Positions 26,727 through 55,624 of a stretch of DNA of 55,624 nucleotides are shown here, in pieces. The translations under genes were made by a program, and so were the position numbers. Each line of letters opens with the position of its first letter. Position 1 is the first letter of the stretch. Below the pieces are notes generated by a model. The model was not told the DNA's origin. It ran no database searches and saw only the letters and a program-made list of their open reading frames with translations. The DNA lies in NCBI GenBank assembly GCA_030824555.1, contig JAVBXK010000069.1, positions 1-55,624 on the forward strand. Direction: 5' to 3'. The DNA comes from a bacterium. GTDB lineage: Bacteria; Pseudomonadota; Gammaproteobacteria; Burkholderiales; Burkholderiaceae_C.

Positions 26727-27899
26727 ATGGCCCCGCGCATCACAGGCACTTACATCACGTCCACCACCACCGGCGAAGCCGTGCGCGCCTTTGTGCCCGC
26801 ACCCTTGCCGCCCGCTGCACCTCCGTTGAACGCTGCCGATTTCGGCCAGGCCAACCGCGCGGCCGAAATGGCCCTGGCACGCTTGGCCGGGGTGGCGGGG
26901 TTGGTGCCGTCGGTGGACTGGTTGCTGTACAGCGCCATCCGCAAAGAAGCGCTGCTGACGTCGCAAATTGAAGGCACCCAGGCCACGCTGGTTGACCTGT
27001 TCAACAACGAAGCAGGCCAAACCCTGGCCAACCCTGACGACGTGGAGGAAGTCACCAACTACCTGCGCGCCTTCCACCATGTGCAAAGCCAGCTCCGCAG
27101 CCCCGATGGCCTGCCACTGAGCGTGCGCCTGCTGTGCCAGGCCCACCGCCTGCTGATGGACGGCGTGCGCGGGGCCGGGCGGCAACCCGGCGAGCTGCGG
27201 CAATCGCAAAACTGGATCGGTGGCACCCGGCCCGGCAATGCCGTTTTTGTGCCACCGCCACCTCAGCAAGTGCCCGCCTTGCTGGCCGATCTGGAGCGCT
27301 TCATCCACTCCCCACTGGCCGATACCGGGCACGACACAACCGCATTGCCCCCGCTGGTGCGGATTGCGCTGGTGCATGTGCAGTTTGAAACCATTCACCC
27401 GTTCCTGGATGGCAACGGGCGCATGGGCCGGTTGCTGATTGCGGCACTCATCGAGCAATGGGGTCTGCTGCCCGAGCCCCTGATGTACGTGAGCGGTTTT
27501 CTCAAACAACATCAGGCCGAGTACTACCGCCGCCTGGGTGCCGTGCGCACCGATGGCGACTGGGAGGGCTGGGTGGCCTTTTTCCTGGAAGGCGTGGCCG
27601 TGGCCGCCGAGCAGGCCGAGCGCAGCATCGTCGCGCTGGCCAGCCTCATCAACGCAGACCGCCGCCGCCTGTTGCAAACACCCAGGGCCACCACCGCCAG
27701 CCTGCGCCTGTTCGAGCTGCTGCCCGCCATGCCACGCTTCTCCATCGAACAGGTGCGCCAGCGGCTGGACACCACCTTCCCCACCGCCACCGCCGCCGTC
27801 AAACTGCTGCAAGACCTGGGGCTGGTCACCGAACAGACCGGCCAGAAAAAGCACCGCCTGTTCAGCTACCAGGCGTATGTGGCGTTGCTGAGTGACTGA
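26727..27899 (+). CDS. Fic-domain protein with C-terminal winged helix (catalytic motif intact)
   Basis: 390-residue Fic protein, predicted to transfer AMP from ATP to a protein hydroxyl. The Fic motif is complete, [18 protein letters not shown] (about residues 214-231). An inhibitory helix is in the N-terminal part: [16 protein letters not shown] has the (S/T)xxxE(G/N) form of a class II Fic. An N-terminal Fic/DOC domain precedes it ([20 protein letters not shown]). The C-terminal 65 residues look like a winged helix ([40 protein letters not shown]), as in Fic proteins of the SO4266 type. An inverted repeat lies upstream, suggesting autoregulation. The acylphosphatase gene follows after four bases. 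Confidence 0.92.
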
Positions 27900-28375: not shown

Positions 28376-29797
28376 ATGCCACGAACCCTGCCTGCAGTGG
28401 GTCTTGACTCACTGGTTGAACTGATCGCCGCTCACCCGGACGGGCTGGGTATCGAGGCCATTGCAAAACTGAATGGCGACTCTGTCGCCAGGCGAACGCT
28501 GCAGCGCCGGTTGGCCCTGCTGGTCAGCCAGGGTCGGATTCAAACAACGGGCGAGGCGCGCTCCACGCGTTACCTGCGCCAGCCACACACTACCCAAGCC
28601 AACATGGCAGTCCGTCTAAATGCAGACGGTGCAGCTGCCTCGGCGGCAGCAGTTGACGAGGCCTATGTGCCCATTTCGCCAGAAGGGGCCGAGATCAAAG
28701 CCTTTGTGCGCCAACCCCGCACCCAGCGCCCCCCTGTTGGCTACCGCGTGGCGTTTCTGCAGCAATACCAGCCCAACCAAACCGCCTATCTGCCGCCCGG
28801 TCTGCGCGAGCAACTGCACGCCATGGGCCGGTCCCCGGCTGAGCAAACACCCGCAGGCACCTTTGCCAGGGACATCCTCAACCGCCTGTTGATTGACTTG
28901 TCTTGGGCATCGTCGCAACTGGAGGGGAACACCTACAGCCGCTTGGACACCGAGCGTCTGATCGAGTTTGGACAGGCAGCGCAAGGCAAAGGCGCGCTGG
29001 AAACCCAAATGATCCTGAACCACAAGCAGGCCATTGAGTATCTGGTGCTGGACCCGGCAAACGCCAGGCTGTCACCCGACACCCTCATCGCGCTGCACGC
29101 CTTCCTGGCCGACGGCCTGATGGCCGACCCCTCTGCGGTGGGCCGCCTTCGCCGCCGTGCCGTGGAAATTGGCGGCAGCGTGTACCTGCCCGTTGCGCTG
29201 CCTCAGCGGCTGGAAGAACTGTTTGGCATCGTCGTCCAGATGGCGGCGGATATTCAAGACCCTTTCGAGCAGGCCTTCTTCCTCATGGTGCACCTGCCCT
29301 ATCTGCAGCCGTTTGAAGACGTGAACAAGCCGGTGTCCCGTCTGGCGGCCAACATCCCGTTCATCCGGCACAACCTGTGTCCGCTGTCGTTCATTGATGT
29401 GTCGCAAAAGGCCTATGTGGACGCCATGATTGGGGTGTACGAACTCAACCGAATCGAACTGCTGCGCGACGTTTTTGTGTGGGCCTACGAGCGCTCGTGC
29501 CAGCACTACGTGGCCGTTCAGCAGAACCTGGTGCTGCCCGACCTGTTCCGGCTGCGCTACCGGCAGGCCTTGAGCGAAGTGGTTGCCGCCCTGGTGAAAG
29601 GCGACGAGGCCGCCACAGCCGCCAATGTGGCAAACAAACTGCCCAGCGTCGTGGCAGAAGCCGACCAGCGCGATTTCATTCAACTGGTGTTGCAGGAGTT
29701 TGCCGCCTTGCACCCTGGCAACGCCGTGCGCTTTGGCATCAGGCCGCTGGAGCTGGCCGTGTGGAGGGGTAAACATGGCAGTGATAGCAAAGACTGA
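28376..29797 (+). CDS. wHTH-Fic protein with degenerate active site (paralogue A)
   Basis: 473 residues. N-terminal winged helix (10-70: LVELIAAHPDGLGIEAIAKL; RRTLQRRLALLVSQGRIQTT), then a Fic/DOC N-terminal region and Fic core. An inhibitory-type motif SSQLEGNTYSRLD is kept. The Fic loop reads YLQPFEDVNKPVSRLAANIP where HPFxxGNGRxxR is expected: catalytic H is Q, both glycines are V and K, and the first R is P. AMP transfer by the known mechanism is therefore unlikely. Two palindromes upstream suggest it is a transcription regulator that controls itself. Its close paralogue is at 35954. The stop codon falls in a dispersed repeat. Confidence 0.88.
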   Translation: MPRTLPAVGLDSLVELIAAHPDGLGIEAIAKLNGDSVARRTLQRRLALLVSQGRIQTTGEARSTRYLRQPHTTQANMAVRLNADGAAASAAAVDEAYVPISPEGAEIKAFVRQPRTQRPPVGYRVAFLQQYQPNQTAYLPPGLREQLHAMGRSPAEQTPAGTFARDILNRLLIDLSWASSQLEGNTYSRLDTERLIEFGQAAQGKGALETQMILNHKQAIEYLVLDPANARLSPDTLIALHAFLADGLMADPSAVGRLRRRAVEIGGSVYLPVALPQRLEELFGIVVQMAADIQDPFEQAFFLMVHLPYLQPFEDVNKPVSRLAANIPFIRHNLCPLSFIDVSQKAYVDAMIGVYELNRIELLRDVFVWAYERSCQHYVAVQQNLVLPDLFRLRYRQALSEVVAALVKGDEAATAANVANKLPSVVAEADQRDFIQLVLQEFAALHPGNAVRFGIRPLELAVWRGKHGSDSKD

Positions 29798-29825
29798 TGC
29801 CAGTCAAGCAGTGGGGCCACATTTC
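29784..29825 (+). repeat. Dispersed hairpin repeat, copy 6
   Basis: ATAGCAAAGACTGATGCCAG then TCAAGCAGTGGGGCCACATTT. Overlaps the last codons of the Fic gene and supplies its TGA (29795-29797). Closely matches copy 5 at 28203. Confidence 0.75.
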
Positions 29826-29868
29826 ACTTCGTGTCAACCCAGCAAGCGGCCAACAGCCGACAACTGCC

Positions 29869-30057
29869 TCAGACGGTCTTCGGCCAGTTGATCTGCACTT
29901 TGCGGCTTTGCCCGATGCAGTTCCGCAAACACAGGTTGATGAGGCTTTGGCAGGGAACGCCCGCTTCGTCTGCCATGCGCTTGAAACAGGCCACCACATC
30001 CTCGGACAGGGGGAAACGAACTGACAAAAACAATAGCAAAAAACAGGAGCGATTCAC
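29869..30057 (-). pseudogene. Remnant of a BrnA/CopG-type antitoxin
   Basis: The C-terminal part of this 62-codon frame reads FPLSEDVVACFKRMADEAGV then PCQSLINLCLRNCI, which resembles the DNA-binding or oligomerising end of BrnA-like antitoxins (V-x-x-F-x3-A-x-x-A-G-V-P-Y-Q-S-L-I-N-x-Y-L). The 5' part (NRSCFLLLFLSV) is encoded by TTTTTTGCTATTGTTTTT, which resembles an edge of the dispersed repeat, so the true start is missing. No toxin partner is present. I read it as a truncated gene; an expressed short form cannot be excluded. Confidence 0.4.
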
Positions 30058-30213
30058 GCTTTATTTGTTTGCCTGATCGGCATTTTCAGCATCTGAAAAA
30101 CAAGCGATTTTCTGCAATTTTTCACTGAAACGCCTCAAACTGACCGCCAGAAGCGCTGTTGGCGTGCGGGCGAGCTGTTTTTCAGGAAAATTGAGTGTAT
30201 TTTGATAAGAAAA

Positions 30214-30260
30214 ATAGCCTGTATCGCTTTAAATAAAAGCGTAAGCAGCTCACATTTTTT
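30214..30260 (+). repeat. Dispersed hairpin repeat, copy 7
   Basis: ATAGCCTGTATCGCTTTAAA then TAAAAGCGTAAGCAGCTCACATTTTTT. GCTTT/AAAGC stem retained; the TAGAGGC part is changed to TAAGCAGC. Lies in the gene-free stretch after the second Fic gene. Confidence 0.65.
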
Positions 30261-30403
30261 GCTCTTGTTTTTGGGGTTTTGTGCCGGGCAACGCGACGCG
30301 TCAAATACCCGCCAAGTTACTGAGGTGCCCTTGTCAGCTGTGGCCGGTGAAAACCGGGTCACCGCAGCGGCCCAGGTAAAGCCCTGGGTTAAACAAATTG
30401 CAA

Positions 30404-31333
30404 TCAAACCCGCGCTGGGGTTTTGAACACGTTCTGGCGGTTCCAGCCAATGAACGCTGCTCCTGGCAACAGCTCGGGCGACTGGGGCCGCAGCAGCGGC
30501 TGGCCGTGGTGCTTCAACTCGCCATTCAACCCGCGGGTACCCGCAATGGCGTGGCGGCTGAACACAATGCGCAAGTCGCCCGGCTCCAGCGTGAAGGCGC
30601 CCAAGTCAAACAGCTTGTGGTGCAGGGCGCACAGCGACAGGCCGTTGGCCTCCACATCCGGCCCGCCAGCGGTGTGCCACTGAATGTGCGCTGCCTCCAG
30701 CCCGGCAGACACGTTGCCAATGCGCAAGTCAAACCCGCACACGCAGCAGCGGTGTTCGTAGGCAAGCAGCACCTGTTCTCTGAACCGTGCGCTGCGTGAA
30801 CGCTTTGCACCCGCGCCGTAGGTGGGCGAAGCGCTGTCGCGAACCTCCGGCGCTGGCGCTGACAAATCAAGCCCCAGCACCGCCGCAATGTCGGCATGCA
30901 GCGTGGGCGGAAAGTAAGCCTCCAGCACCCGCAGCGCCACGCGCACCAGCAGCTCGGGCTGCGCACGCAGCGCGGCATCCACCTCGGGTGCAAATCCTGC
31001 TTGCACGCCGTCCTGGCGCAGCTCGGACAGATTGGGCGTGGCTCCCAGCGCGCGGTTGACCAGCGTGGCTGGGCCGTTGACCTGCCACAGTGCACGGTCC
31101 AGGTGCCAGAACGGATAGTGGCGGCTTTTGGCCGCGCCAGATGGCCCGAACTCGGCCAGCAGGTTCTGCAAAGGTTGATCCACCTCGGCAAACGGCACCA
31201 GCCGCGCTTCGCCCCGCTGAATGCGGGAAAGCGCCAGCAGCACCAACAGCGGTTTGTGCGGGGCATAGCGTCCATTGTTCTGGGCACGCCGCAGGCCCTC
31301 GAACAGGGCTATGGTTTGGTCTGCGTTCAGCAT
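30404..31333 (-). CDS. Phosphorothioate-DNA-binding SBD-HNH endonuclease (type IV restriction-like)
   Basis: 309 residues. The N-terminal domain (about 1-165) matches the sulfur-binding domain of ScoMcrA-type enzymes: NNGRYAPHKPLLVLLALSRI, then SRHYPFWHLDRALWQVNG, with the P-H-K-P-L and Y-P-F-W-x-L landmarks. The C-terminal HNH nuclease reads YEHRCCVCGFDLRIGNVS, GLEAAHIQWHTAGGPDVEAN and LSLCALHHKLFDLGAFTLEP (C-x2-C, AAHI, and ALHHKLFD). Such proteins cut DNA bearing phosphorothioate backbones. The window has no dnd genes, so it would act against modified invading DNA. It is the last gene of a four-gene minus-strand cassette, 36 bases after the NERD gene. Confidence 0.87.
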   Translation of the reverse strand: MLNADQTIALFEGLRRAQNNGRYAPHKPLLVLLALSRIQRGEARLVPFAEVDQPLQNLLAEFGPSGAAKSRHYPFWHLDRALWQVNGPATLVNRALGATPNLSELRQDGVQAGFAPEVDAALRAQPELLVRVALRVLEAYFPPTLHADIAAVLGLDLSAPAPEVRDSASPTYGAGAKRSRSARFREQVLLAYEHRCCVCGFDLRIGNVSAGLEAAHIQWHTAGGPDVEANGLSLCALHHKLFDLGAFTLEPGDLRIVFSRHAIAGTRGLNGELKHHGQPLLRPQSPELLPGAAFIGWNRQNVFKTPARV

Positions 31334-31369
31334 GGGCGGGCTACGAGCAACGGACTTTGCCGATTTGCA

Positions 31370-32302
31370 TCAAAACTGCACCTGATGGTCACGGCAGTAT
31401 TGCAAACCGCCAAATCGCTTCTCGTTGTTCCAGCAGAACTTGCCCTCTGCGTAGCTGATTTTTTGTCCGCAATGAGCACAAATGAGTTTTTTGCTCGGCG
31501 AGTCGATTTGTGCGGTTGGCATGCGGCCATCCGTTCGCGGTTGGTTTGGAGCTGGACTGGTGGGTATCTGCGGTTGTGGCCTGATGAAATCAGGCAGGGT
31601 CAGCAAGTCAGCCGGGAGATGCTGTCTGAGCAGCATTTCTCCCCATTCGCGGATCGTCTCGGGACTGCGCATATTGCCAAACAGCTTGAGGACACCGATG
31701 GCACCCAGCTCTTTGTCTGCGAAGCGCTTGTGCCAACTTGGAAATTGGTCTGCTTTCATCACTGCACTGCTATCAAAAGCTTTACTGGGTGGCCGGGTGA
31801 TGATGGCTTGCGGCTGCAGCAAAACAATGTGATGAAACGCCATGTTTTCGCCTAATCTCGGCGCGATGCCAAGGGTCTTCAGCAACTGCGACAACACGCG
31901 CTCGTGGCGATGGCTTTGTTCAATCGGTGACGGAATGCCGTATTTCTCACGGCCGTAAACAGCCGTGAACTCGCCCATCTCATTGATGATCAGGCTGCCA
32001 GAGTAGTTTTTCGTTTCGAACAGATACATGCCTGCGGCCCGACTGATGACAAGGTGGTCTATCTGCGCCACTTCACCGTCGACCACAAAGCGCAAGTCAT
32101 GCAAGACGACATGATTGGCGCTGTCTTTGAAGTAGCTGTCCAAATAGAACGCGGCATCGCGCTCGCCTTGTATGCCCTTGACCATCCGTTGGTGTTCGTC
32201 TTTCAGCCAAGTTATCTGCGAGGGTGTGAGTTGCGATGACCGCTGTAACTCTGCCAACAGTTCGAGGCGCTTCGACTTGTCGTCGGCTTTTTTTAGCTGC
32301 AT
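31370..32302 (-). CDS. NERD-domain protein with C-terminal zinc-finger-like tail
   Basis: 310 residues. The nuclease-related domain (about 40-165) has the PD-(D/E)xK-like core: GIQGERDAAFYLDSYF, VAQIDHLVISRAAGMYLFET (D, then the E-x-K of FETKNYSG). The C terminus has ICAHCGQKISYAEGKFCWNN and YCRDHQ, a probable four-ligand zinc site (C-x2-C ... C ... C-x2-H). A Pro/Thr-rich linker (about 235-265) joins the two. NERD proteins are found with helicases, kinases and restriction genes, but their targets are poorly known. It is third in the minus-strand cassette, between the HIT gene and the HNH endonuclease gene. Confidence 0.88.
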   Translation of the reverse strand: MQLKKADDKSKRLELLAELQRSSQLTPSQITWLKDEHQRMVKGIQGERDAAFYLDSYFKDSANHVVLHDLRFVVDGEVAQIDHLVISRAAGMYLFETKNYSGSLIINEMGEFTAVYGREKYGIPSPIEQSHRHERVLSQLLKTLGIAPRLGENMAFHHIVLLQPQAIITRPPSKAFDSSAVMKADQFPSWHKRFADKELGAIGVLKLFGNMRSPETIREWGEMLLRQHLPADLLTLPDFIRPQPQIPTSPAPNQPRTDGRMPTAQIDSPSKKLICAHCGQKISYAEGKFCWNNEKRFGGLQYCRDHQVQF

Positions 32303-32367
32303 GAATTTCTCCCTTTCGTTGTTTATTCAATCACGCACGGTGCGCTGTCTGGTGATGTTTGATGGCC

Positions 32368-32754
32368 TTAAGGCCAGTACTTTGCCTTGTCTGGAATGAC
32401 CCACCGCACGCCCCCGCGTGGGTCGGGCAGATCGCCCGCAAAGCGGGGGATGAGGTGGATGTGCAGGTGCGGCACGGTCTGCCCCGCAGCCGCGCCGTCG
32501 TTGATGCCAATGTTGTAGCCACCGGGCGCGAACTCGGCATCGGTGCCCTGCCTTGCCTCTGCCAGCAGGGCCATCAACCCGTTGCGTTCGTCGTCGGTCA
32601 GATCGAAGAACGAGCCCACATGCCGACGGGGAATGACCAAGGTGTGACCGGGGGAAACGGGAAATGCGTCACGGATGACCCATCCCACGGCGTTGGACAG
32701 GAGGATGCGTTCGGGTGGGAGGTGGCAGAACGGACAGGCAGCAAGTTCGGTCAT
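32368..32754 (-). CDS. HIT-family hydrolase
   Basis: 128-residue histidine-triad protein. It opens MTELAACPFCHLPPERILLS, as in many Hint/HIT proteins, has VIRDAFPVSPGHTLVIPRRH, and ends the fold with the triad QTVPHLHIHLIPRFAGDL (H-x-H-x-H-x2). HIT enzymes cleave nucleotidyl-phosphoramidate or nucleotidyl-protein bonds or dinucleoside polyphosphates; substrate unknown here. The start at 32754 is fixed by the family N terminus; the longer frame runs back into the DUF3883 gene. It is the second gene of the cassette, 16 bases after the DUF3883 gene, and is an unexpected partner for nucleases. Confidence 0.92.
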   Translation of the reverse strand: MTELAACPFCHLPPERILLSNAVGWVIRDAFPVSPGHTLVIPRRHVGSFFDLTDDERNGLMALLAEARQGTDAEFAPGGYNIGINDGAAAGQTVPHLHIHLIPRFAGDLPDPRGGVRWVIPDKAKYWP

Positions 32755-32770
32755 GGGAAGTCCCTGAGCC

Positions 32771-33616
32771 TCAACTGAAACTGGCCCGGTAAGACACCGG
32801 ATCAAGCAGGCAATGGTCGGAAACCTCCCCTGCCAGATCGAACAGGCGGGGTTGCTTGCGGAACTCAAACAAGCGGTAAAGGTGGAATTGCTGCGCAGCC
32901 GTGCGCGAAAAGGTCAGTTCGTTCTTCGACACGAAAAAGGGCGTGTCCTTGCCGAAAGCCGTTGTTTTGACTTCGATGAAACGCTCTCGTCCATCCGGCT
33001 CAAAAGACAAAACGTCGAACCCCAGCCCATCGCCTTGGGATTGCGCCACGTGCTCCACCCGGTCAGCCAGCGTGGATTGGCCAAGCGCGTTCAGCCGCCA
33101 GTGTTCAAACTGCAGCACAAATTCTTCGCCAGCCAAGCCCAGAGATTGGTTCTGGGCCTCCCGCTCCAGATAGTCCCGCTTGATGGCAGGCTTGTTCCAT
33201 TGCCATTCGGGCTGTGCCTCGGCTACGCGCAGCTGGCGGACCGGTGCTTGTGTGAGGGTGTGTGCGAAATCCGCGCCAAGCGGCGTGACCGCAGGCTGCT
33301 GTACGGCGGCCAGCGCGGCCTGATCCAGCATGGAGCGCCGCTTGAGCTGATCCGTGACCACCTCCGCCAGCATGGCTTGGTAGTTGGACCGAGGTTGATA
33401 ACCACGGATGTACGGAATGCCCAGGCGAATGAGGACTGCGCTGATGTTGCAGTGCTTGAACTCGATGGAACCGTCAGAGCGGTTGTTCAACTTTGCTTGC
33501 AAACGTCGCCGATGTTCGGTCTTGCTGTAAGTCTGGCCCGCCAACTCCAAGGTGAGCATTTGCAGGTGGTCTGCAACGATGGCTTCGACTTCTTCTGTTG
33601 ACCAGTGTTGGGGCAT
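32771..33616 (-). CDS. DUF3883 (PD-(D/E)xK nuclease-like) protein
   Basis: 281 residues. The C-terminal part (about 155-265) is a DUF3883 domain: GLAGEEFVLQFEHWRLNALG, LADRVEHVAQSQGDGLGFDV and ERFIEVKTTAFGKDTPFFVS. The D of GFDV and the E-x-K of IEVKTT give a PD-(D/E)xK-type catalytic set. The N-terminal half (WSTEEVEAIVADHLQMLTLE; RSDGSIEFKHCNISAVLIRL with conserved GIPYIRGYQPRSNYQ) matches the usual companion region in these proteins. DUF3883 proteins accompany defence systems. It is the first gene of the four-gene minus-strand cassette, so its promoter lies between 33617 and about 33700. Confidence 0.88.
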   Translation of the reverse strand: MPQHWSTEEVEAIVADHLQMLTLELAGQTYSKTEHRRRLQAKLNNRSDGSIEFKHCNISAVLIRLGIPYIRGYQPRSNYQAMLAEVVTDQLKRRSMLDQAALAAVQQPAVTPLGADFAHTLTQAPVRQLRVAEAQPEWQWNKPAIKRDYLEREAQNQSLGLAGEEFVLQFEHWRLNALGQSTLADRVEHVAQSQGDGLGFDVLSFEPDGRERFIEVKTTAFGKDTPFFVSKNELTFSRTAAQQFHLYRLFEFRKQPRLFDLAGEVSDHCLLDPVSYRASFS

Positions 33617-33650
33617 CTGAGATGGAATGCAGTGAGAAATTTGAAAGGAA

Positions 33651-33863
33651 GTGCATCAAGCGTACCTGATGCCTCTGTTGCCCGCACCTACTCAGATGCT
33701 TTGCGGGCGTGGCCATTTGAGGCCACAGCACATCCGCCTGTTCGTGCGCGACACCAAGCTGAGCCAAGGCACTGCCGCGCCATTCACGTATCACGGGCGT
33801 GCCAACTACGTGACGCACGAAGGCGGCGCACCCATGAGCGTCACGCTGACTGTGCAGAGCTAG
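33651..33863 (+). pseudogene. C-terminal fragment of a DUF3427-type protein
   Basis: In this frame the codons from about 33735 read IRLFVRDTKLSQGTAAPFTY and HGRANYVTHEGGAPMSVTLT, close to the C-terminal end of DUF3427 domains (LFVR ... APFxYLGxxxYxSHEGxxPMxITW) normally attached to a helicase. The upstream codons do not continue the homology, so only the last 45 or so residues survive. It is divergent from the DUF3883 cassette. Bases 33864-34222 after it hold only repeat copy 8 and no defensible gene. Confidence 0.65.
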
Positions 33864-33922
33864 AGCAAGTCATGAATGCGCTGGCAGGCATGGCAAAACT
33901 GATGGATGATTTGCGCAAAACA

Positions 33923-33966
33923 ATAGCTTACTATGACGCCAATAAAGCTGCATAGGCATATTTTGT
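33923..33966 (+). repeat. Dispersed hairpin repeat, copy 8
   Basis: ATAGCTTACTATGACGCCAA then TAAAGCTGCATAGGCATATTTTG. Lies 60 bases after the DUF3427 remnant, same direction; stem imperfect. Confidence 0.65.
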
Positions 33967-34223
33967 TTCACAGTATTGGCGCACAAAGGCTTGAAGTTGT
34001 TGCCACTGCGCTGGCCGTCTTTCAGCCCCGCAACAGCTGCGCAGCGTGCTGTGCGGCCATGCAGTAAAGACGACACCGTGTGGTGCACCCCCCATTGCGT
34101 GCCAGACGAATTGGGCTGGCTCGGCGGGCTTGTTTACCCAGGCTGCCCGAATGCCCGCCTAAACGGGGGGCGCTCAGTAATGGGTGTCTCTACCGCGATT
34201 GGCCCGCGACCCCCACTCGGTCA

Positions 34224-34240
34224 CTCGTCTCGATATCCGC
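34224..34240 (+). repeat. 17-base direct repeat, left copy
   Basis: CTCGTCTCGATATCCGC, identical to 34593-34609. With one mismatch the match extends to GTCnCTCGTCTCGATATCCGC (21 bases). The two copies bracket the DUF4143 remnant. Confidence 0.85.
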
Positions 34241-34257
34241 TGGCGGCAGTCACCACC

Positions 34258-34592
34258 TCATTTGCCAGCCCCAAGCGCGAGCGTTTGCATGGCCACCTGC
34301 AAGGGCATGGCCTCGATGCCGTCGCGCATGGGGTACGCCTCTGTTCCCGGGTACACCAACCATTTCCGGCTGGGTTGAATGTCTTCACAGGCGCTGTGAA
34401 AGCCCCGCTCCACCTTGGGTGCGGTGCTGCGCTTGATTTCAGGGTGCTGGCATGCAAATGGGCGAGCATGGTCCAACACCTGCGCAGCAATTCAGCCCCG
34501 ATGCGGGGGGCGAACTGCGCCACGTCACGCTCCAGACACGTGCGGGTGAAGTCGCGCGGCCACAACACGCTGGCAGCGCCCCGAGTCAGTCG
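34258..34592 (-). pseudogene. Internally deleted DUF4143 ATPase remnant
   Basis: Two pieces of a DUF4143 ATPase survive in different frames. The first (from about 34589) reads LWPRDFTRTCLERDVAQFAP then RIGAELLRRCWTMLAHLHAS, matching the middle of the intact homologue at 38098 (LRWRDMFVATYLDKDIPAMG, LRRLWTMLAHNQG). The second, in the frame ending at 34258, reads HPEIKRSTAPKVERGFHSAC and KWLVYPGTEAYPMRDGIEAM, matching its C terminus (EVKRSSAPTVSKGF; AYPMREGIEVM). The P-loop domain and the central region are gone. The remnant lies between direct repeats. Confidence 0.75.
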
Positions 34593-34807
34593 CTCGTCTC
34601 GATATCCGCAGCCTCATGCCCCGCCTCGGCCAGCGCGGCGGCTATGTCTGCCGGGTCAATCATGCGGGTGTGTTCGGCCCAGGCGCGGTGCTGGGCCAGG
34701 TTCACCCCGGCGTGGCTGATGCAGGGCAGGTCTTGCAGCTCGAACATCACGGCCTCGGCATCGGCCTGTGTCGTCATGGTGGGCAGGGTGAAGGTGGTGG
34801 TGGGCAT
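34586..34807 (-). CDS. Small HMA-like protein lacking CxxC
   Basis: 73 residues. The spacing of hydrophobic residues and glycines (FTLPTMTTQADAEAVMFELQ; DLPCISHAGVNLAQHRAWAE; IDPADIAAALAEAGHEAADI) looks like a heavy-metal-associated ferredoxin-like fold, but the N-terminal metal-binding CxxC is absent and a single Cys follows LP. It could be a metal-chaperone relative that has lost or changed its site. The final codons (ADIETSD) overlap a 17-base direct repeat whose second copy lies 369 bases away. No clear ribosome binding site. A 65-codon gene with a CPPC motif lies 23 bases upstream. Confidence 0.55.
   Translation of the reverse strand: MPTTTFTLPTMTTQADAEAVMFELQDLPCISHAGVNLAQHRAWAEHTRMIDPADIAAALAEAGHEAADIETSD
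34593..34609 (+). repeat. 17-base direct repeat, right copy (within the HMA-like 3' end)
   Basis: CTCGTCTCGATATCCGC, the partner of 34224-34240. It encodes part of the last residues of the HMA-like protein on the minus strand, like a gene 3' end duplicated on insertion. Confidence 0.85.
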
Positions 34808-34830: not shown

Positions 34831-35028
34831 TCAGGCGGCTTCGTCTCCGGTGCCGATGTGGATGTGGTGGCTCTGCCACCGGTCGGACAGGGTGTGGACC
34901 AACGCGGCTTCGCCATCTGCCAAGTGTCCATCGGCCACCACCACTTCGTGCGCCATGGCCTGCAATTCCACTTGCAGATAGGTGTCTGTGATGCTGCAAG
35001 GGGGGCAGAACATGAGCCAGTTTGCCAT
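34831..35028 (-). CDS. Small CPPC-motif protein of unknown function
   Basis: 65 residues, MANWLMFCPPCSITDTYLQV followed by HEVVVADGHLADGEAALVHT and ending HHIHIGTGDEAA. It has a thioredoxin- or metal-type CPPC near the N terminus and a His-rich HHIHIG near the C terminus. Codon use is GC-rich at third positions, as for a real gene, but there is no good ribosome binding site. An internal ATG at 35013 would also keep the CPPC. It precedes the HMA-like gene by 23 bases, so the two may act together in metal handling. I do not recognise a family. Confidence 0.45.
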   Translation of the reverse strand: MANWLMFCPPCSITDTYLQVELQAMAHEVVVADGHLADGEAALVHTLSDRWQSHHIHIGTGDEAA

Positions 35029-35119
35029 TTGTCAGAACGACAGCGGTCAGCTCGATGTGCGGCATTTTGCAATCAAAAATAGCTTGCATGGTTGCGTGGG
35101 TACGCTGACAATTGCAAGC

Positions 35120-35374
35120 ATGAACAGCAAGCATCGCAAGACACTTGAAGCCATCCTCAGCAAGCCCACACCCACCTCGCTGGAGTGGGCGCGCATTGAA
35201 GCGCTGCTGGTGGCTGTGGGCTGCACGGTGATTGAGGGCAATGGCTCGCGTGTGCGGTTTGTGCTGGGGCAGCATGTGGGCACCTTCCACCGGCCACACC
35301 CGGCCAAAGAGGCCAAGCCATACCAAGTGGCCGATGCCAAAACATTTTTGCAACTGATTGGAGTCACGCCATGA
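35120..35374 (+). CDS. hicA: HicA-type toxin (mRNA interferase)
   Basis: 84-residue toxin with a double-stranded-RNA-binding-like fold that cleaves mRNA. MNSKHRKTLEAILSKPTPTS, then LEWARIEALLVAVGCTVIEG, NGSRVRF and FHRPHPAKEAKPYQV match the HicA subgroup with GSR in place of GSH and the histidine in FHRPHP. The start at 35120 is set by the family N terminus; an upstream in-frame extension lacks homology. The stop overlaps the ATG of hicB (ATGA). The toxin-first order is typical. The promoter region has an imperfect TTGC repeat (35082, 35112). Confidence 0.92.
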   Translation: MNSKHRKTLEAILSKPTPTSLEWARIEALLVAVGCTVIEGNGSRVRFVLGQHVGTFHRPHPAKEAKPYQVADAKTFLQLIGVTP

Positions 35375-35706
35375 GCGCCATGACATACAAGGGCCAAACG
35401 GCCCGCATTGAATACAGCGATGCAGACGGCCTGTTTGTGGGGCGTCTGGTGGGCATCACCGACGTGGTGGGATTTCACGCCGAAACGGTGACCGAGCTGC
35501 GCACCGCCTTTCACGAAGCGGTTGATGACTACCTGGACACATGCGCCAAGATCGGCAAAGCGCCGCAAGCCCCGGCCAGCGGCAAGCTGATGCTGCGCGT
35601 GCCCGCCGAGGTGCACCGCGCTGCCCTGACAGCGGCTGAGGCGGCGGGCACCAGCCTGAACCAGTGGGCCGCCAAGGTGCTGCAACAGGCTGCGGCTCAT
35701 GGGTGA
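35371..35706 (+). CDS. hicB: HicB-type antitoxin
   Basis: 111-residue antitoxin. The N-terminal degenerate RNase H-like HicB domain reads YKGQTARIEYSDADGLFVGR, then GFHAETVTELRTAFHEAVDD. The C-terminal ribbon-helix-helix (KLMLRVPAEVHRAALTAAEA with TSLNQWAAKVLQQAA) binds the hicAB operator. It is translationally coupled to hicA by a 4-base overlap. The HicB antitoxin neutralises HicA and represses the pair. The pair is intact and probably functional, and may stabilise the surrounding accessory region. Confidence 0.94.
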   Translation: MSAMTYKGQTARIEYSDADGLFVGRLVGITDVVGFHAETVTELRTAFHEAVDDYLDTCAKIGKAPQAPASGKLMLRVPAEVHRAALTAAEAAGTSLNQWAAKVLQQAAAHG

Positions 35707-35953: not shown

Positions 35954-37366
35954 ATGCCGCGCGCCACACCCACCGAAGAACTCCAGCTGATCGAAACCAT
36001 CCTCGCGGCGCATCCAGGTGGCCTCCGCATTGCCGACCTCGAAGCCGAGATGGCGCGCCAGCAGGGTGCGCAGCTCAACCGACGCACACTGCAGCGCCGC
36101 CTGCAAAAGCTGGTTGACGCGCAACGTCTGGCCACCGAGGGCGACAGCGTTGCGGTGGTGTACCGCCTTGTGCAGGGTGTATCGGCGCAGGCCCTTGCTA
36201 CAGCCACCGTTGCCACAACCGGAACGGCCGAAGCCGAGCTGTACGTGCCAGTGTCGGCAGAAGGTGCCGCCATTCGCGACCAGGTGCGGTTGCCGCTGAT
36301 GCACCGCCGCCCGGTGGGCTACCAGCGTGCCTTTCTGGATGCCTACCAGCCCGGCGAAACGTTTTACCTGCCCCAGTCGCTGCGCCTGCAGTTGCACGAA
36401 ATGGGCCGCACCTCTGCAGCCGAAAGACCGGTCGGCACCTATGCCCGCAACGTGCTGGGCCGGTTGCTGGTCGATCTGTCGTGGGCCTCGTCCAGGTTGG
36501 AGGGCAACACCTACACCCGGCTTGACACGCAGAACCTGATCGAGCGGGGCCAGGTGGCCACCGGCAAAGATGCCATCGAAACGCAGATGATCCTGAATCA
36601 CAAGGCGGCCATCGAAATGCTGATCGACGGGGCCGACGAGGTGGGCTTTGATGCCTTCACCTTCAAAAACCTGCATGCTGTCTTGTCGCAAGACTTGCTG
36701 CGCGACCCGCTGTCCAGTGGCCGGTTGCGCAGGCGGCCGGTGGACGTTTCGGGCACGGTGTTTCTGCCGTTGGCCTTGCCGCAGGTGATTGAAGACAGCT
36801 TTGCGCTGCTGCTGGCCAAGGCGGCTGCCATTACAGATCCGTTCGAACAGGCGTTTTTTCTGATGGTGCAGTTGCCGTATTTGCAGCCGTTTGAAGATGT
36901 GAACAAGCGCGTGTCGCGCATAGGGGCCAACCTGCCGTTGATCCTGCATAACCTGTGCCCGCTGTCGTTTGTGGACGTGCCGGAGCGTGCCTACGTGGAG
37001 GGCACGCTGGGGGTGTACGAGCTCAACCGGGTGGAGCTGCTGCGCGACGTGTTTGTGTGGGCCTACGAACGTTCGTGCCAACGCTACCTGGCCATCACCC
37101 AAACCATGGTGGAGCCCGACCCGCTGAAGATCAAATACCGCGAGGCGCTGATTCTGGCGGTGCAGTCAGTGGTGACAGGGCTGCGGCTGCCGAGCCCGGC
37201 TGTCATGGCGGAACTGGCCCAAGCCCACGCTGCGGTACCAGACCGTGCGGCATTTGCAGACATGCTGGGTGCCGCATTGCAGCAGTTGCATGAGGGCAGC
37301 ATTGCCCGCTACCGGCTGCGCCGCTCCGAATATCTGGCATGGCGGGCAGTCAAGCAACCGGGCTGA
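35954..37366 (+). CDS. wHTH-Fic protein with degenerate active site (paralogue B)
   Basis: 470 residues, a close paralogue of the protein at 28376 along its length (for example LYVPVSAEGAAIRDQVRLPL; RLLVDLSWASSRLEGNTYTR; ETQMILNHKAAIEMLI). Same order: winged helix (10-75; NRRTLQRRLQKLVDAQRLAT), Fic N-terminal region with an SxxxEGN inhibitory helix, and Fic core. The loop is YLQPFEDVNKRVSRIGANLP: catalytic H is Q and the two glycines are V and K, but both arginines are kept, so it is less decayed than paralogue A. A dense palindrome array lies upstream. Function is inferred as a transcription regulator with a non-catalytic or altered Fic fold. Confidence 0.88.
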   Translation: MPRATPTEELQLIETILAAHPGGLRIADLEAEMARQQGAQLNRRTLQRRLQKLVDAQRLATEGDSVAVVYRLVQGVSAQALATATVATTGTAEAELYVPVSAEGAAIRDQVRLPLMHRRPVGYQRAFLDAYQPGETFYLPQSLRLQLHEMGRTSAAERPVGTYARNVLGRLLVDLSWASSRLEGNTYTRLDTQNLIERGQVATGKDAIETQMILNHKAAIEMLIDGADEVGFDAFTFKNLHAVLSQDLLRDPLSSGRLRRRPVDVSGTVFLPLALPQVIEDSFALLLAKAAAITDPFEQAFFLMVQLPYLQPFEDVNKRVSRIGANLPLILHNLCPLSFVDVPERAYVEGTLGVYELNRVELLRDVFVWAYERSCQRYLAITQTMVEPDPLKIKYREALILAVQSVVTGLRLPSPAVMAELAQAHAAVPDRAAFADMLGAALQQLHEGSIARYRLRRSEYLAWRAVKQPG

Positions 37367-49945: not shown

Positions 49946-51217
49946 CTACGTACCCCACCGCCACTGGGTCACGGCATCTGCCACCGCTTGGGGCGACACA
50001 AATTCCTGTTCCAGCCGCCCGCGAACGAGGGTGCGCAGGTGTTGGTTCAGCGCGGCTTCAGCGGGCATCCAGATACCGCTCGGCTCACCGCTGGCAGCAA
50101 CCGGTTCGGGCACCGCCAGGTGGGCGTGCGCATCGAAGGTGGTGCGGTCCATCAGCAGTGCGTGCAAGTGGGGCAGGTGGCTGCGGGCGGTGGCCAGCAT
50201 GGCCAGGCCCCAGGTGTCCAGGTCGCCCCAGTAGGCCACTTGGCGACTTTGCAGCCAGGGCGCGGCCAGCCAGCCCAGGTTGAGCCCGGCCCCCAGGATG
50301 GCCACGGTGTCGGCCAGCGGCTGGGGCAGCTGGTGCAGGCAACGCTCGTTTTCCACCAGCAGGATGTGGCTGGCCGCCAGGGGCGTGGCGTGCAGTTCGG
50401 TGGCGGGCACGCGCTGGCGGGCGAAGGGCAGCAGGCCGGGGGCCAGCGGGGCCACCAGCAGCCAGTGCTCGCCTTCTGCGCAGGCACCCAGAAAGGCGGT
50501 CAGGCCCTGGGCGCTGGCTTCGCCGTCAAAGCGCACGTCCAGCAAGGCCGTCAGCAGGCTGGCGTGGCGCTCGAAAAACTTGCTGTCGTTGCCCGCCAAG
50601 GCCAGCGCCCGCAGGGGCTTGCCTTGGGCACAGCCGGGCTCCAATTGCAACGTCATGCGGGCGGCGGTGATGACGTCGGCTTCGGGTACGCCGCGCCACA
50701 AGGCCAGCCTGCGCAGCAGCAGGCGGTGAAAGGCAGGGTCCACCCGGCTCAGTACGGACTGCAACGCCTGGTAGTCGGCCCACACGGCGGTGCCTGCAGG
50801 GCCACCGAAGCGGGCGATGGCGGCCATGCACTCGGACGGGCGGGCCAGTACCCAGTGGGTGGGCACCTGCACTGCGGCACTGCCGCCCCGGTAGCGGCGG
50901 GCCTCCCACACCACGGTGCCCACGGGAGGGTGAGTGGGGTGGCGTTCAGCCCAGGCGTTCACAGCTTCGGGTTGCCCACTGGGTGGTCGGGGGGCAGGGG
51001 TCGCGTTCACGGGACTTCCTGCCACGGCCTGCCACTGCTGCAAGTGCTGGCGCAGCGCGGCGCTGTCATCCAGAAAGGTGGTGGCATCAGGCAGGCCGAT
51101 GGCCAGGCGCAGCGGCCACGCCCCGCTGCCGGGCGCGGGCAGCAGCTGTTGCTCACGCCAGTCGGCACGCTGCCACTGGCGCACCAGCCCTTCGGCGAGT
51201 TGGTGGGGGGATTTCAT
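49946..51217 (-). CDS. jetD: Wadjet system subunit JetD (DUF3322-DUF2220, Toprim-like nuclease)
   Basis: 423 residues. The N-terminal DUF3322 part reads SPHQLAEGLVRQWQRADWRE then LRLAIGLPDATTFLDDSAAL. The C-terminal DUF2220 has a Toprim-like nuclease core, ILLVENERCLHQLPQPLADT and VAYWGDLDTWGLAMLATARS (W-G-D-x-D acidic pair). JetD cleaves plasmid DNA extruded by the JetABC SMC complex. The start at 51217 (MKSPHQL) is preferred; the longer frame goes into jetC. It is the last gene of the operon, 71 bases after jetC, with a dispersed repeat in the gap. Confidence 0.93.
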   Translation of the reverse strand: MKSPHQLAEGLVRQWQRADWREQQLLPAPGSGAWPLRLAIGLPDATTFLDDSAALRQHLQQWQAVAGSPVNATPAPRPPSGQPEAVNAWAERHPTHPPVGTVVWEARRYRGGSAAVQVPTHWVLARPSECMAAIARFGGPAGTAVWADYQALQSVLSRVDPAFHRLLLRRLALWRGVPEADVITAARMTLQLEPGCAQGKPLRALALAGNDSKFFERHASLLTALLDVRFDGEASAQGLTAFLGACAEGEHWLLVAPLAPGLLPFARQRVPATELHATPLAASHILLVENERCLHQLPQPLADTVAILGAGLNLGWLAAPWLQSRQVAYWGDLDTWGLAMLATARSHLPHLHALLMDRTTFDAHAHLAVPEPVAASGEPSGIWMPAEAALNQHLRTLVRGRLEQEFVSPQAVADAVTQWRWGT

Positions 51218-51260
51218 GGGTGAGCGTGAAACCAATAAGCGAAATACGTTGTCGAAATCA

Positions 51261-51304
51261 ATAGCTGCTTGCGCTTTATGTAAAAGCGCTAGAGGCTGAT
51301 TTGG
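51261..51304 (+). repeat. Dispersed hairpin repeat, copy 11 (canonical)
   Basis: ATAGCTGCTTGCGCTTTATG then TAAAAGCGCTAGAGGCTGATTT, the cleanest copy: stem GCGCTTT (51271-51277) / AAAGCGC (51283-51289). It spans the jetC 3' end and supplies its TAG (51289-51291). Confidence 0.85.
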
Positions 51305-54300
51305 CTTGAAATTTTGCGTTGGTTGGCATGGGCGTTCAACTCTTCCCAACTCAGGCAGGCCAGGGTGGCCTGGGCACCGCGCCTGTGTACCAGCACGGCG
51401 CTGCGGGTGTGGTTGCGCAGCAGGCGCAGTTCTTTGTTGGGCGTGACGAACAAGGCGTGCAGGCCAAACTCGCGCAGCGCCTGGATGATGCGGGTGGCCA
51501 CGGCAGCCGAGCTTTTGGAGAAGGCTTCGTCCAGCACGATGGTGCCAAACAGCGGTGCCTTGCGCCCCGGCGGGCACAGCGCGTAGCTGAGCGAGGCGGT
51601 CAGCACATAGCTGGCGATGATTTCTTTTTCGCCCCCGCTGCCGCCTTGCGAGCCGGTGCGCCGCTCCAGCACTTGGCCCGTGGCGCGGTCGATCACATGC
51701 ACCGCAAACTGCAGCCGGTAGCGGGCATCCAGCAGGGCTTGGGCGGCTTTGGAGCGGCGGTTGGTGGCGTGCTCGCGCAGCAGTTGCACCATGGCTTGCA
51801 GCGCCTGGTAGTGGCTGGTGCCGCCGTCGTCGCGCAGGCGCTCGCTGCGCAGGCGGGCCATGGCTTTGTACAGGTCTTGCAACACGGGGTGAACCACGGG
51901 CTGCGGGTCGAGCTGGAGGGTGCGGCCCGGCTGAAAATCCACCCGCTGCAGCGTGCGGTTGAGGTCGGCTATGCGCTCGCTGATCTCGGCCACCTGGGCA
52001 TCGATGCCGCGCAGCAGGGTGCTCACGCCCTGGTCAGACGCGTTGTTCAGGTAGTCCTGAAACTGCGCACGTTTGGCCGGCAGGTCTTCTTCTTCCAGCA
52101 CGCGCAGGCGCTCCTGGTAGTGCGGCAGGGCCTCCACTTCCTGCGCCTGCTCGGCCAGTGCGCCCCGGTCTTCTTTCTGGGCACGGCCCATCTGGCGGAT
52201 GATGTCTTTGTGCAGCTCGGCTTGCTGTTTGCTGAGTGTCTGGACGTGTTGGGTGGTTTGGGCCAGCGTCTGGCGTTCCTGGGGTTCCAGGGTGTCGCAG
52301 GCCAAAGCCGATGGTTCAAAGGCAGGCATCAGCAGGGGCAGCAAGGCATCGGCATCGCTGGCTGAGCCGGTGGTGGCCATGTGTGTGGCGGCTGCGGCAA
52401 GGGCCAGGGTGGTGGTGGGCAGCGATGCCGTTGCCGCGGCCTGCTCGGCCACACGGGTGGCGTAGTCCTGCTGTTTTTTCTGGGCTTGCCGGTGCTCGGT
52501 GTGTGCGGTGGCGTGCTGGTTTTCCAGGTCGCGCAGGACATCGTCGGCTTGCCGGGATTGCTCGCTGGCGGCTTCCCAGCGGGCCTTGGCTTGCGCGGTG
52601 TCGGACTGCGGGTTGAGCAGGGCGGCCAGCTTGGCTTGCAGTTGTTGCAGCAGGGCGTGGGCGGCGGGCACGTCCAGGTCTTCAAAGCGCAGGGTCAACA
52701 GCTGCCGCCACAGGCTGAGTTGCGCGGTGGCGTGGGCCTGTGCCGTTTGTGCGGCTTTTTTGGCCTGGTCCAGGGTTTGCCAGGCTTGGGTTTGGGTGTG
52801 GATCTGTTGCGTCAGGTGGGCCAGCCGGTCGCGGTTGTCAAAGCCGGTCAGCTTGTCGTCTTCAAGGCGCTTGTGGTCTTGTTTGTCAAATTGCTGGGCC
52901 TTGCCCGACATGAGGCCCTGCTGGGTCATGGCGTGTGGGGTGTGGCGCAGGACTTCGGGGCTGTCCACACAGTGGCGGTCTTGTTCGCGCAGCAACTGGC
53001 GCAGCGCGCCTTGCAGCGGGTGGGGCTTGAGGTTGAGTTTGGTGCAGAAACCATCGGCCCAGAAGGTTTCGGTTTGCTTGGGTTCCTTGGCCTCCAGCAG
53101 GCGCACGTGCAGGTGGTTGTGCCGCTGGTTGACCCAGTGCAGGGCCGGTGCAATGGAATCGGGCGGCACGAGGATGCGCAGACGCTGGGCACCTAAGGCA
53201 CGCTCGATGGCACCACGCCACGCTTGCTGGTTTTTTTGCACCTCCACCAGCTCGGCCAGAAAGGGCAGGTCGTCTGGCGGCAGCTTGAGTTGCTCGGCCA
53301 GCGCGGCGCGAAAGGCGGGGAACTCGGGCGGCAGGTTGGAGCCAGGGCGCTGGCGCACGGCATCCAGTTCGGTTTGCAGGCGCTGCAATTCGGCATGGGC
53401 GTTGCGCTCGGCGGTCACGGCCTCTTCAGTGGTGGCTTGCAGTTCGGCTTGCTTGGCTTGCAGTTGTTGCATGGCCCCTTCGGCCTGCTGCTGGTGCTGG
53501 GCCAGCATGGCGGCGTTGAGCGGGCCGCTGCCCGACAGGCCCAGGTTGCGCAGTAACAGGTGGCAGTCGGCCAGGTGGGCTTGCTTTCGTGCCACCTCGG
53601 TTTGCTGGGTGGCGATGCTGTGTTCAAGCAGTTTGATATCGCCACCGCCTGTGCGCAGGTACAGCCCGTGCAGGTGCTGTTCGTGGGTGCGGGCTTGGTC
53701 CAGTGCGGTGCGGGCAGTGGCCATGCCTTGCTGGTGCTGGGTCAGGTTGGCTTGCAGCTCGGTGCAACGCGCATCCCACAGCCGGGTGCCTTGTGTGGCA
53801 AACCAGTGCGGCAGGGCGGCGTGCAGGCTGCGCCACTGGTGCAGGCGCAGGTGCAGTTGCTGCTCTTGCAGCGCCATGTCACGCAGGGGCAGCAGGGCCG
53901 TGTATTGGTGGTTGGCCAGTTCCAGCTCGGCGTGGATGGTGGCCAGCTCGTCAAAACTGGCCACCACTTGCAGCGCGTCGTCATAGGCGGCGTGGTCGTC
54001 CAGCACCAGGTCGCGGAAGATCTCGTCGATGCTGTTGAGCTGCTTCAGGCCCGCCGCGCGGTTGAGCAGGGTGAAAGCGTTGGGGCCGACCTCGAAAAAC
54101 CCTTGCAGCCGCGCCAGGTAGGCCGATTTGCTGTTGAACATCTGCAAACCGTCGGTGTGTTTGACCAGTTGGCTCAGGGCGCGGGCACCGCCCCGGTGGT
54201 GCTCTTCCAACCACAGGTCCAGGCTGTGCCCGGTGCCACGGGCAAAGAACCAGCGCCGCGTCAGGTCGGCCACCGATGAGCTGCTGCCTTCAAACCACAG

Positions 54301-55592: not shown

Positions 55593-55624
55593 GGTGGTGG
55601 GGTGGTCGGTTGGGTTGGCCGGGG
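55593..55624. other. Window edge
   Basis: 32 bases of GC-rich sequence between the jetB start and the edge of the window. Nothing can be assigned; jetA is expected beyond. Confidence 0.6.

What the first reader, a model, noticed from the sequence alone, without database searches (positions are those of the whole stretch)
30404..33616. Four-gene DUF3883-HIT-NERD-SBD/HNH cassette, candidate defence system
On the minus strand, in tight order (gaps of 16, 65 and 36 bases), lie a DUF3883 nuclease-like protein, a HIT hydrolase, a NERD protein with a zinc-finger tail, and a phosphorothioate-reading HNH endonuclease. Three are nuclease-type and the fourth is a nucleotidyl hydrolase. This set is not a system I can name. 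The SBD suggests it targets phosphorothioated DNA, and the HIT enzyme could act on a nucleotide signal or an adenylylated protein. No dnd genes are present to modify self DNA.
Basis: partly seen in the sequence, partly recalled or inferred. Interest (0 to 1): 0.72.

Follow-up and report, generated by a model that had tools for sequence, protein, structure and literature searches.

The report
Composite restriction locus with HIT partner
Four neighbouring bacterial genes, a likely cutter of sulfur-marked DNA, a HIT-family companion enzyme and two other predicted nucleases, look like a patchwork restriction locus rather than one fixed four-part defence system; the part that recurs elsewhere is the pairing of the HIT enzyme with restriction-type nucleases.

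Summary
The four genes are at the stated coordinates, order and spacing, with catalytic motifs present. The last is a clear SBD-HNH phosphorothioate-dependent Type IV nuclease: NCBIfam 270 bits against a cut-off of 180; best fold matches are sulfur-binding domains; the H/K/Y/P sulfur contacts are kept. Missing dnd genes are normal for such enzymes. The first gene matches PADLOC's candidate PDC-S36. The full set was found in 0 of 298 other genomes of the family sample at E 1e-20. Pairs do recur: HIT directly before SBD-HNH at 7 of 10 full-length relatives, NERD before SBD-HNH at 2 of 10 (one genus), DUF3883 before HIT at 4 of 31. HIT also precedes HNH_4, PLD-helicase or Schlafen-type genes. Reading: a composite Type IV restriction locus built round a HIT-nuclease pair, with NERD and PDC-S36 as usually independent nucleases. 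The HIT function is inference: nucleotide or DNA-end clean-up, perhaps desulfuration of phosphorothioate nucleotides (a HINT1 activity), is testable.

The parts
32771..33616 (-). PDC-S36 protein: N-terminal helical domain + NOV_C/DUF3883 PD-(D/E)XK-like nuclease domain
   Evidence: PADLOC PDC-S36 2.4e-115; Pfam NOV_C 3.5e-22; D201/E215/K217 invariant in 41 rows; model pLDDT 87.9; Foldseek matches all weak (best E 0.08), several of them nucleases
32368..32754 (-). HIT hydrolase of a branch with a C-terminal DPRGGVRW...YW motif; recurrent neighbour of restriction-type nucleases
   Evidence: Pfam HIT 4e-24; triad H96/H98/H100; 42 invariant columns in 13 chosen rows with different partners; contexts
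31370..32302 (-). NERD nuclease-related protein with C-terminal four-Cys, zinc-finger-like tail
   Evidence: Pfam NERD 6e-22; Cys275/278/290/303 and E96-T-K98; 19 other genomes of the family sample carry it, directly before SBD-HNH in 2
30404..31333 (-). SBD-HNH phosphorothioate-dependent (Type IV) restriction endonuclease
   Evidence: NCBIfam NF045808 270 bits, cut-off 180; phmmer to ScoMcrA/SprMcrA SBD and TagI; Foldseek 7cc9/5zmo prob 1.00
33651..33863 (+). Remnant of the C-terminus of a PLD-helicase-DUF3427 type gene, divergent from the cassette
   Evidence: 51% identity over 39 aa, E 2.8e-12, to the C-terminus of the PLD-helicase-DUF3427 protein of L163; no Pfam match on its own

Best explanation
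This is a composite Type IV restriction locus. The SBD-HNH enzyme reads phosphorothioate in incoming foreign DNA and cuts beside it (shown for relatives, inferred here). The HIT hydrolase is a recurrent neighbour of this branch of SBD-HNH enzymes and of several unrelated nucleases; I infer that it does not sense or signal but cleans up nucleotides or DNA ends made by the nuclease. Two routes fit: removing AMP from abortively adenylylated 5' ends, or desulfurating the deoxynucleoside phosphorothioates released from digested phosphorothioate DNA, as human HINT1 does with dGMPS. NERD and PDC-S36 are additional predicted nucleases that usually stand alone and were joined to the pair here, giving layered restriction. 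Shown here: gene content, motifs, pair recurrence, change of partners. Inferred: co-transcription, PT cleavage, HIT substrate, NERD and DUF3883 roles.
For: SBD-HNH assignment by three methods. HIT directly upstream on the same strand at 7 of 10 full-length SBD-HNH relatives found in 299 family and 379 order genomes (two of the seven are in one genome, G266, at like positions of two contigs). Where both occur in a family genome (4 genomes, 0.46 expected) they are adjacent in 4 of 4 (two of the four share a genus). One more pair, L226, in the class sample. HIT precedes HNH_4, MazG-PLD-helicase and Schlafen-type ATPase genes elsewhere; sister HIT genes L166/L167 have different partners. NERD>SBD-HNH in G075 and G180, with DUF3883 tail-to-tail (in G075 only its last 77 residues matched). 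DUF3883>HIT in G117, G201, G261, G297. G117, same genus, keeps DUF3883-HIT, followed 3 bases after the HIT stop by a 54-base SBD-HNH remnant, and had no NERD match. HINT1 hydrolyses dGMPS to dGMP and H2S (PMC8775712, passages).
Against: Distant SBD-HNH enzymes lack HIT: no HIT within 3-4 kb of the five opened of 11 plasmid hits, H24-H28. HIT partners include nucleases without sign of PT reading: HNH_4 against the SBD profile gave probability 1.7%, E 0.029, which weakens the desulfurase route. P0002 is closest to Ap4A phosphorylase and comes nearer to Fhit than to HINT1, and HINT1 acts about 20 times more slowly on dGMPS than on GMPS. Of 23 class-scan HIT loci at about 57% identity or less, 21 had no nuclease recognised directly downstream. 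In the HIT tree the SBD-HNH label is more clustered than in shuffles (5 changes, mean 7.3, as low in 9 of 500), so partner change is not free. Sub-threshold DndC-like matches exist in two SBD-HNH carriers, G266 and G060. Nothing here measures expression or activity.
Confidence: 0.6

Rival explanations
1. The four genes form one integrated defence system in which each protein is required, DUF3883 and NERD being effectors, SBD-HNH the sensor and HIT a regulator.
For: Tight same-strand spacing; every gene has been found beside another of the set somewhere; DUF3883, NERD and SBD-HNH lie together in G180 and, with only a DUF3883 fragment matched, in G075.
Against: Complete set in 0 of 298 other family genomes at E 1e-20. 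27 of 31 other DUF3883 places have no HIT or same-strand SBD-HNH match beside them (one of these 27, in G244, is followed by a distant SBD-like HNH gene), and 17 of 19 NERD places have no SBD-HNH match beside them. G117 keeps DUF3883-HIT with only an HNH remnant.
Confidence: 0.12
2. An unconnected pile-up of single defence genes in a hot spot, with no functional link at all.
For: Flanks hold Fic genes, HicAB, a DUF4143 ATPase and remnants; the window also holds a Wadjet-like set. NERD and DUF3883 are mostly without the others.
Against: HIT-SBD-HNH adjacency in three genera of the family, with 23-35 base gaps between the matches, in two other families of the order and one of the class sample, and repeated HIT-nuclease order with unrelated nucleases.
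Confidence: 0.18
3. HIT degrades a nucleotide signal or de-adenylylates a protein that holds the nucleases inactive, as proposed for ThsC of Thoeris.
For: HIT enzymes act on nucleotides; PADLOC ThsC model E 6.4e-14; the off-switch idea for ThsC is in PMC8565338 (passage). A predicted HTH-nucleotidyltransferase gene (cluster of 3) lies beside HIT in L150 and beside DUF3883 in L057 and L059. A Fic gene with an intact-looking HPFLDGNGR motif lies at 26727-27899 in the window.
Against: That nucleotidyltransferase was seen beside HIT in one locus only, and I saw no other gene cluster that recurs with HIT, by inspection of mostly unannotated clusters. The two Fic genes nearest on either side (28376-29797, 35954-37366) have QPFEDVNK where the canonical motif has a histidine (recalled).
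Confidence: 0.17

Closest known systems
SBD-HNH phosphorothioate-dependent Type IV restriction enzymes (EcoWI, SprMcrA, ScoMcrA; PMC7461809, PMC6224610)
   Same: SBD fold match and sulfur-contact residues H/K/Y/P, HNH motif with ScoMcrA spacing, no DndC found in the genome
   Different: Preceded by NERD and HIT genes in an apparent operon; the A168 position is H77; no SRA domain (unlike ScoMcrA)
PADLOC candidate PDC-S36
   Same: Full-length match of P0001 (383 bits)
   Different: A single-gene candidate in PADLOC (recalled); here upstream of HIT, NERD and SBD-HNH
Thoeris ThsC (HIT family)
   Same: HIT fold in a defence setting
   Different: No ThsA- or ThsB-like domains in the cassette or scanned flanks; partners are DNA nucleases
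SauUSI-type PLD-helicase-DUF3427 Type IV enzymes (PMC3874153)
   Same: Genes of this architecture are another neighbour of this HIT branch, and a remnant lies beside the cassette
   Different: No intact gene of this type in the cassette
Dnd/Ssp phosphorothioate systems
   Same: Phosphorothioate is the likely recognised mark
   Different: No DndC found (Ssp genes not searched); the enzyme would attack, not protect, marked DNA

Membership tests
SBD-HNH PT-dependent Type IV enzyme | Family profile above curated cut-off | tested here: met
   NF045808 270.3 bits, cut-off 180
SBD-HNH PT-dependent Type IV enzyme | Sulfur-binding fold | tested here: met
   Foldseek 7cc9, 5zmo prob 1.00, E 8.6e-6 to 2.5e-5, although the model itself is poor (pLDDT 49, two rows)
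SBD-HNH PT-dependent Type IV enzyme | Sulfur-contact residues H116, R/K117, Y164, P165 | tested here: met
   H26, K27, Y73, P74 by sequence; the less conserved A168 is H77
SBD-HNH PT-dependent Type IV enzyme | HNH catalytic residues | tested here: met
   H216, N230, H239 at the spacing of ScoMcrA H508, N522, H531
SBD-HNH PT-dependent Type IV enzyme | Cuts PT DNA, not unmodified DNA | not testable with these tools
   needs protein
PDC-S36 | Full-length profile match | tested here: met
   residues 3-280 on 5-279 of 280, E 2.4e-115
PDC-S36 | Phage defence activity | not tested
Thoeris (ThsC) | Adjacent ThsA and ThsB | tested here: not met
   Pfam scans of the four cassette proteins and ten other window proteins show no such domains; not every flanking gene was scanned
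Dnd system | DndC present | tested here: not met
   no match in G000 at E 0.001; 0 of 12 genomes over the cut-off, 2 of 12 (G266, G060) with sub-threshold matches. The 14-genome control gave 5 sub-threshold matches and none over the cut-off, so there was no positive control
Single four-gene system | Conserved co-occurrence of all four genes | tested here: not met
   0 of 298 other genomes in the family sample at E 1e-20; a broader survey of all four was not made

The most novel reading that the evidence does not exclude
The HIT protein is a dedicated partner enzyme of phosphorothioate restriction: it converts deoxynucleoside 5'-phosphorothioates released from digested PT DNA to ordinary nucleotides and H2S (or strips adenylylated 5' ends), making a new two-component HIT-nuclease class of Type IV restriction that spread to other nucleases.
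Probability: 0.15. Interest if true: 0.75.

Novelty: new variant of a known kind. Interest (0 to 1): 0.48.

Why it matters
If the HIT-nuclease pairing is functional, Type IV restriction has an enzymatic accessory. I saw no mention of it in the listings and passages of my searches, which covered open-licence papers only and of which I saw only the top rows. How cells handle sulfur-bearing nucleotides after cutting phosphorothioate DNA would become directly testable with one small enzyme.

Tried and rejected
Single-system reading: not supported after the family scan. Viral contigs: pattern scans found no relatives of P0002, P0003 or P0004. HNH_4 partner as a hidden SBD protein: hhalign probability 1.7%, E 0.029, not supported. 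PLD-helicase as SBD homologue: probability 0.1%, not supported. A more distant SBD-like HNH group (L191, L229, L234, L252) is homologous to SBD-HNH, 99.7%, but below the NCBIfam cut-off. Flanking-repeat origin of the cassette: repeats found in 29700-34700 look like chance. Fold of P0001: no Foldseek match at E 0.001. Fold of P0004: low confidence, only two rows. Literature: nine searches; I saw the listed rows, and passages of eight papers. Alignment A1 used P0001 and 40 of the 65 loci; partial or split matches and some close copies were left out by eye. Neighbour gene calls came from my own simple gene caller, which made some false antisense calls (L165, L166, L168), seen by eye and looked at again. 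One search lists only loci whose anchor gene was called (L012, L019, L023, L153 and others are missing there); searches cover them by tblastn. The DUF3883-HIT-HNH_4 and HNH_4 assignments rest on Pfam for L161 and on likeness to it for the others. On re-checking I added, corrected the gap before the G117 remnant to 3 bases, added the nucleotidyltransferase and the intact-looking Fic gene, and raised the signalling rival from 0.15 to 0.17 for that reason.
Full report
What is there. Pfam gives NOV_C, HIT, NERD and HNH_2 with E from 4e-24 to 4.6e-10. Catalytic motifs are present in all four. A DNA search of the own genome found this one place.

The SBD-HNH protein. P0004 matches NCBIfam 'phosphorothioated DNA-binding restriction endonuclease' at 270.3 bits against a cut-off of 180. 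phmmer reaches the SBD structures of ScoMcrA and SprMcrA and the HNH of TagI. A low-confidence model (pLDDT 49) still finds SprMcrA and ScoMcrA sulfur-binding domains first, probability 1.00. The sulfur-contact residues named in PMC6224610 (passages) are H116, R117, Y164, P165 and A168; P0004 has H26, K27, Y73, P74 and H77. That paper says that lysine replaces R117 in most homologues and that A168 is less conserved. In ten aligned rows, P0004 included, H26, K27 and P74 are invariant and Y73 is leucine in two. PMC7461809 (passages) reports that EcoWI, of the same kind, blocks transformation by dnd+ plasmids of its target sequence type and only partly restricts another, and that under 3.6% of such genes lie near dnd genes. 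DndC was not found in this genome; of 12 genomes searched none passed the cut-off, and G266 and G060, which carry SBD-HNH genes, had sub-threshold matches. So missing self-modification is what one expects of an enzyme that attacks modified foreign DNA.

The other three proteins. P0001 is a full-length match to PADLOC PDC-S36. Of 34 invariant columns in 41 rows, 14 lie in the first 80 residues and 20 in the nuclease part. In L063 a homologous N-terminal domain is fused to an HNH domain instead (52% identity over 88 aa; HNH part E 1e-11 to P0004), which suggests a targeting module joined to exchangeable nucleases (inference). The AlphaFold model is good (pLDDT 87.9) but no solved structure matches at E 0.001; the weak matches (E 0.08 and above) include SPARDA, SSO0001, MGME1 and PvuII chains besides non-nucleases. 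P0003 is a NERD protein with four Cys in its tail. P0002 is a HIT protein with the full triad and a C-terminal DPRGGVRW motif that is invariant in 13 chosen relatives.

Are the four a system? In 299 genomes of the family sample (own included), other genomes with a match at E 1e-20 were 31 for P0001, 17 for P0002, 19 for P0003 and 8 for P0004. None of the 298 others had all four. Co-presence in the family sample (no correction for phylogeny): HIT with SBD-HNH in 4 genomes, 0.46 expected, P 4.5e-4, adjacent in 4 of 4; DUF3883 with HIT in 5, 1.77 expected, P 0.022, adjacent in 4 of 5; NERD with SBD-HNH in 2, 0.51 expected, P 0.086, adjacent in 2 of 2 (one genus); DUF3883 with NERD 3 (1.98 expected), HIT with NERD 2 (1.08) and DUF3883 with SBD-HNH 2 (0.83), none significant. 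In G244, DUF3883 is followed by a distant SBD-like HNH gene.

The HIT-nuclease pair. Full-length SBD-HNH relatives outside the window numbered 8 places in the family scan and 2 in the order scan of 379 genomes; three more matches, two in G280 and one in G435, are fragments and were left out. HIT lies directly upstream at 7 of these 10 (G193, G266 twice, G195, G202, G299, G524), NERD at 2 (G075, G180), neither at 1 (G060). Seen from the HIT side, the family scan has 21 other places: next gene SBD-HNH 5, SBD-HNH remnant 1, HNH_4 4, MazG-PLD-helicase 2 (the second, in L166, by likeness to L168), Schlafen group 3 ATPase 1; 7 have no nuclease recognised directly downstream (G123, G239, G025, G152, G165, G243, G049) and 1 (G245:C76) is cut by its contig end. 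In the class scan of 360 genomes, 29 of 37 other places were examined: 1 SBD-HNH, 1 HNH_4, 3 distant SBD-like HNH, 24 with none recognised, some near contig ends. On plasmids, 6 of 23 HIT hits were opened: HNH_4-like genes follow HIT in NC_008759 and NC_006824, an annotated HNH gene precedes it in NZ_CP114769, and H4, H14 and H18 show no annotated nuclease directly next to it (in H18 the next gene is mutY). A tree of 35 HIT proteins mixes partner types: SBD-HNH needs 5 changes (shuffled mean 7.3, as low in 9 of 500, so it is partly clustered), HNH_4 needs 4 (3.9), and the bootstrap had not settled. L166 and L167, supported sisters on short branches, have different partners; both are contig-end loci of one genome, G245, with 6% contamination, so an assembly effect is not excluded. 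Five opened of 11 plasmid SBD-HNH hits (H24-H28; H24 has the coordinates and contig length of the G060 place) have no HIT within 3-4 kb by tblastn. So HIT is a recurrent but optional neighbour.

History of the locus. G117, same genus, has similar flanks with DUF3883 and HIT (89% and 88%), no NERD match, and 3 bases after the HIT stop a 54-base piece of SBD-HNH. G280, same genus, has only broken SBD-HNH pieces. SBD-HNH was therefore probably present in the genus ancestor and has been broken in two of the three sampled genomes; whether NERD was lost or gained cannot be told. A C-terminal remnant of a PLD-helicase-DUF3427 type gene lies just upstream at 33651-33863; SauUSI, of this architecture, is a modification-dependent enzyme in PMC3874153 (passages), and HKD-helicases also accompany Dnd genes in PMC10853773 (passages).

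How it most likely works. SBD-HNH cuts foreign phosphorothioate DNA (inferred from relatives). HIT stays alike while nuclease neighbours change, which fits a substrate produced by nuclease action better than a partner-specific switch (inference). Two chemistries are open: removal of AMP from 5' ends, as aprataxin does (recalled), and desulfuration of nucleoside 5'-phosphorothioates, which HINT1 performs on dGMPS with release of H2S (PMC8775712, passages). The second is attractive beside SBD-HNH but does not explain the HNH_4 and PLD-helicase neighbours, and P0002 is nearer to Ap4A phosphorylase and Fhit than to HINT1. A signalling or protein de-adenylylation role is not excluded: a predicted HTH-nucleotidyltransferase lies beside HIT in L150 and beside DUF3883 in L057 and L059, and the Fic gene at 26727-27899 keeps an HPFLDGNGR motif. 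NERD and PDC-S36 would add further, independent nucleases.

Verdict. Passages were also seen of PMC8565338, PMC13092281 and PMC11090510; the last two held nothing on HIT proteins. Other papers were seen only as listings.

Noticed in passing
window 49946-55622 (-): JetD, SbcC-like ATPase and DUF4194 genes: a Wadjet-like set that runs to the contig end.
   Followed up: partly
window 28376-29797 and 35954-37366 (+): Two Fic-domain proteins with QPFEDVNK in place of the usual histidine motif (recalled), on either side of the cassette; the Fic gene at 26727-27899 has HPFLDGNGR.
   Followed up: no
window 34982-35706 (+): HicA-HicB toxin-antitoxin pair.
   Followed up: no
L158 (G280) 1705-2936: Broken SBD-HNH in a genome of the same genus, with its 3' end present twice inside a 152-base direct duplication.
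   Followed up: partly
L063 433-1491: N-terminal domain of the PDC-S36 family fused to an HNH nuclease instead of the NOV_C nuclease.
   Followed up: partly
L017, L018, L049, L195-L200 and others: PDC-S36 genes near a cluster I read as gyrB (with genes read as dnaA and dnaN), within three genes at 14 of 74 called places, some loci possibly duplicates; a possible insertion hot spot.
   Followed up: partly
L191 9646-10602; L229, L234, L252: A distant SBD-like HNH group below the NCBIfam cut-off, itself next to HIT or PDC-S36 genes.
   Followed up: partly
L150 9234-9848, L057 2352-2993, L059 5883-6578: Predicted nucleotidyltransferase (HTH domain found in L150) beside HIT or PDC-S36 genes.
   Followed up: partly
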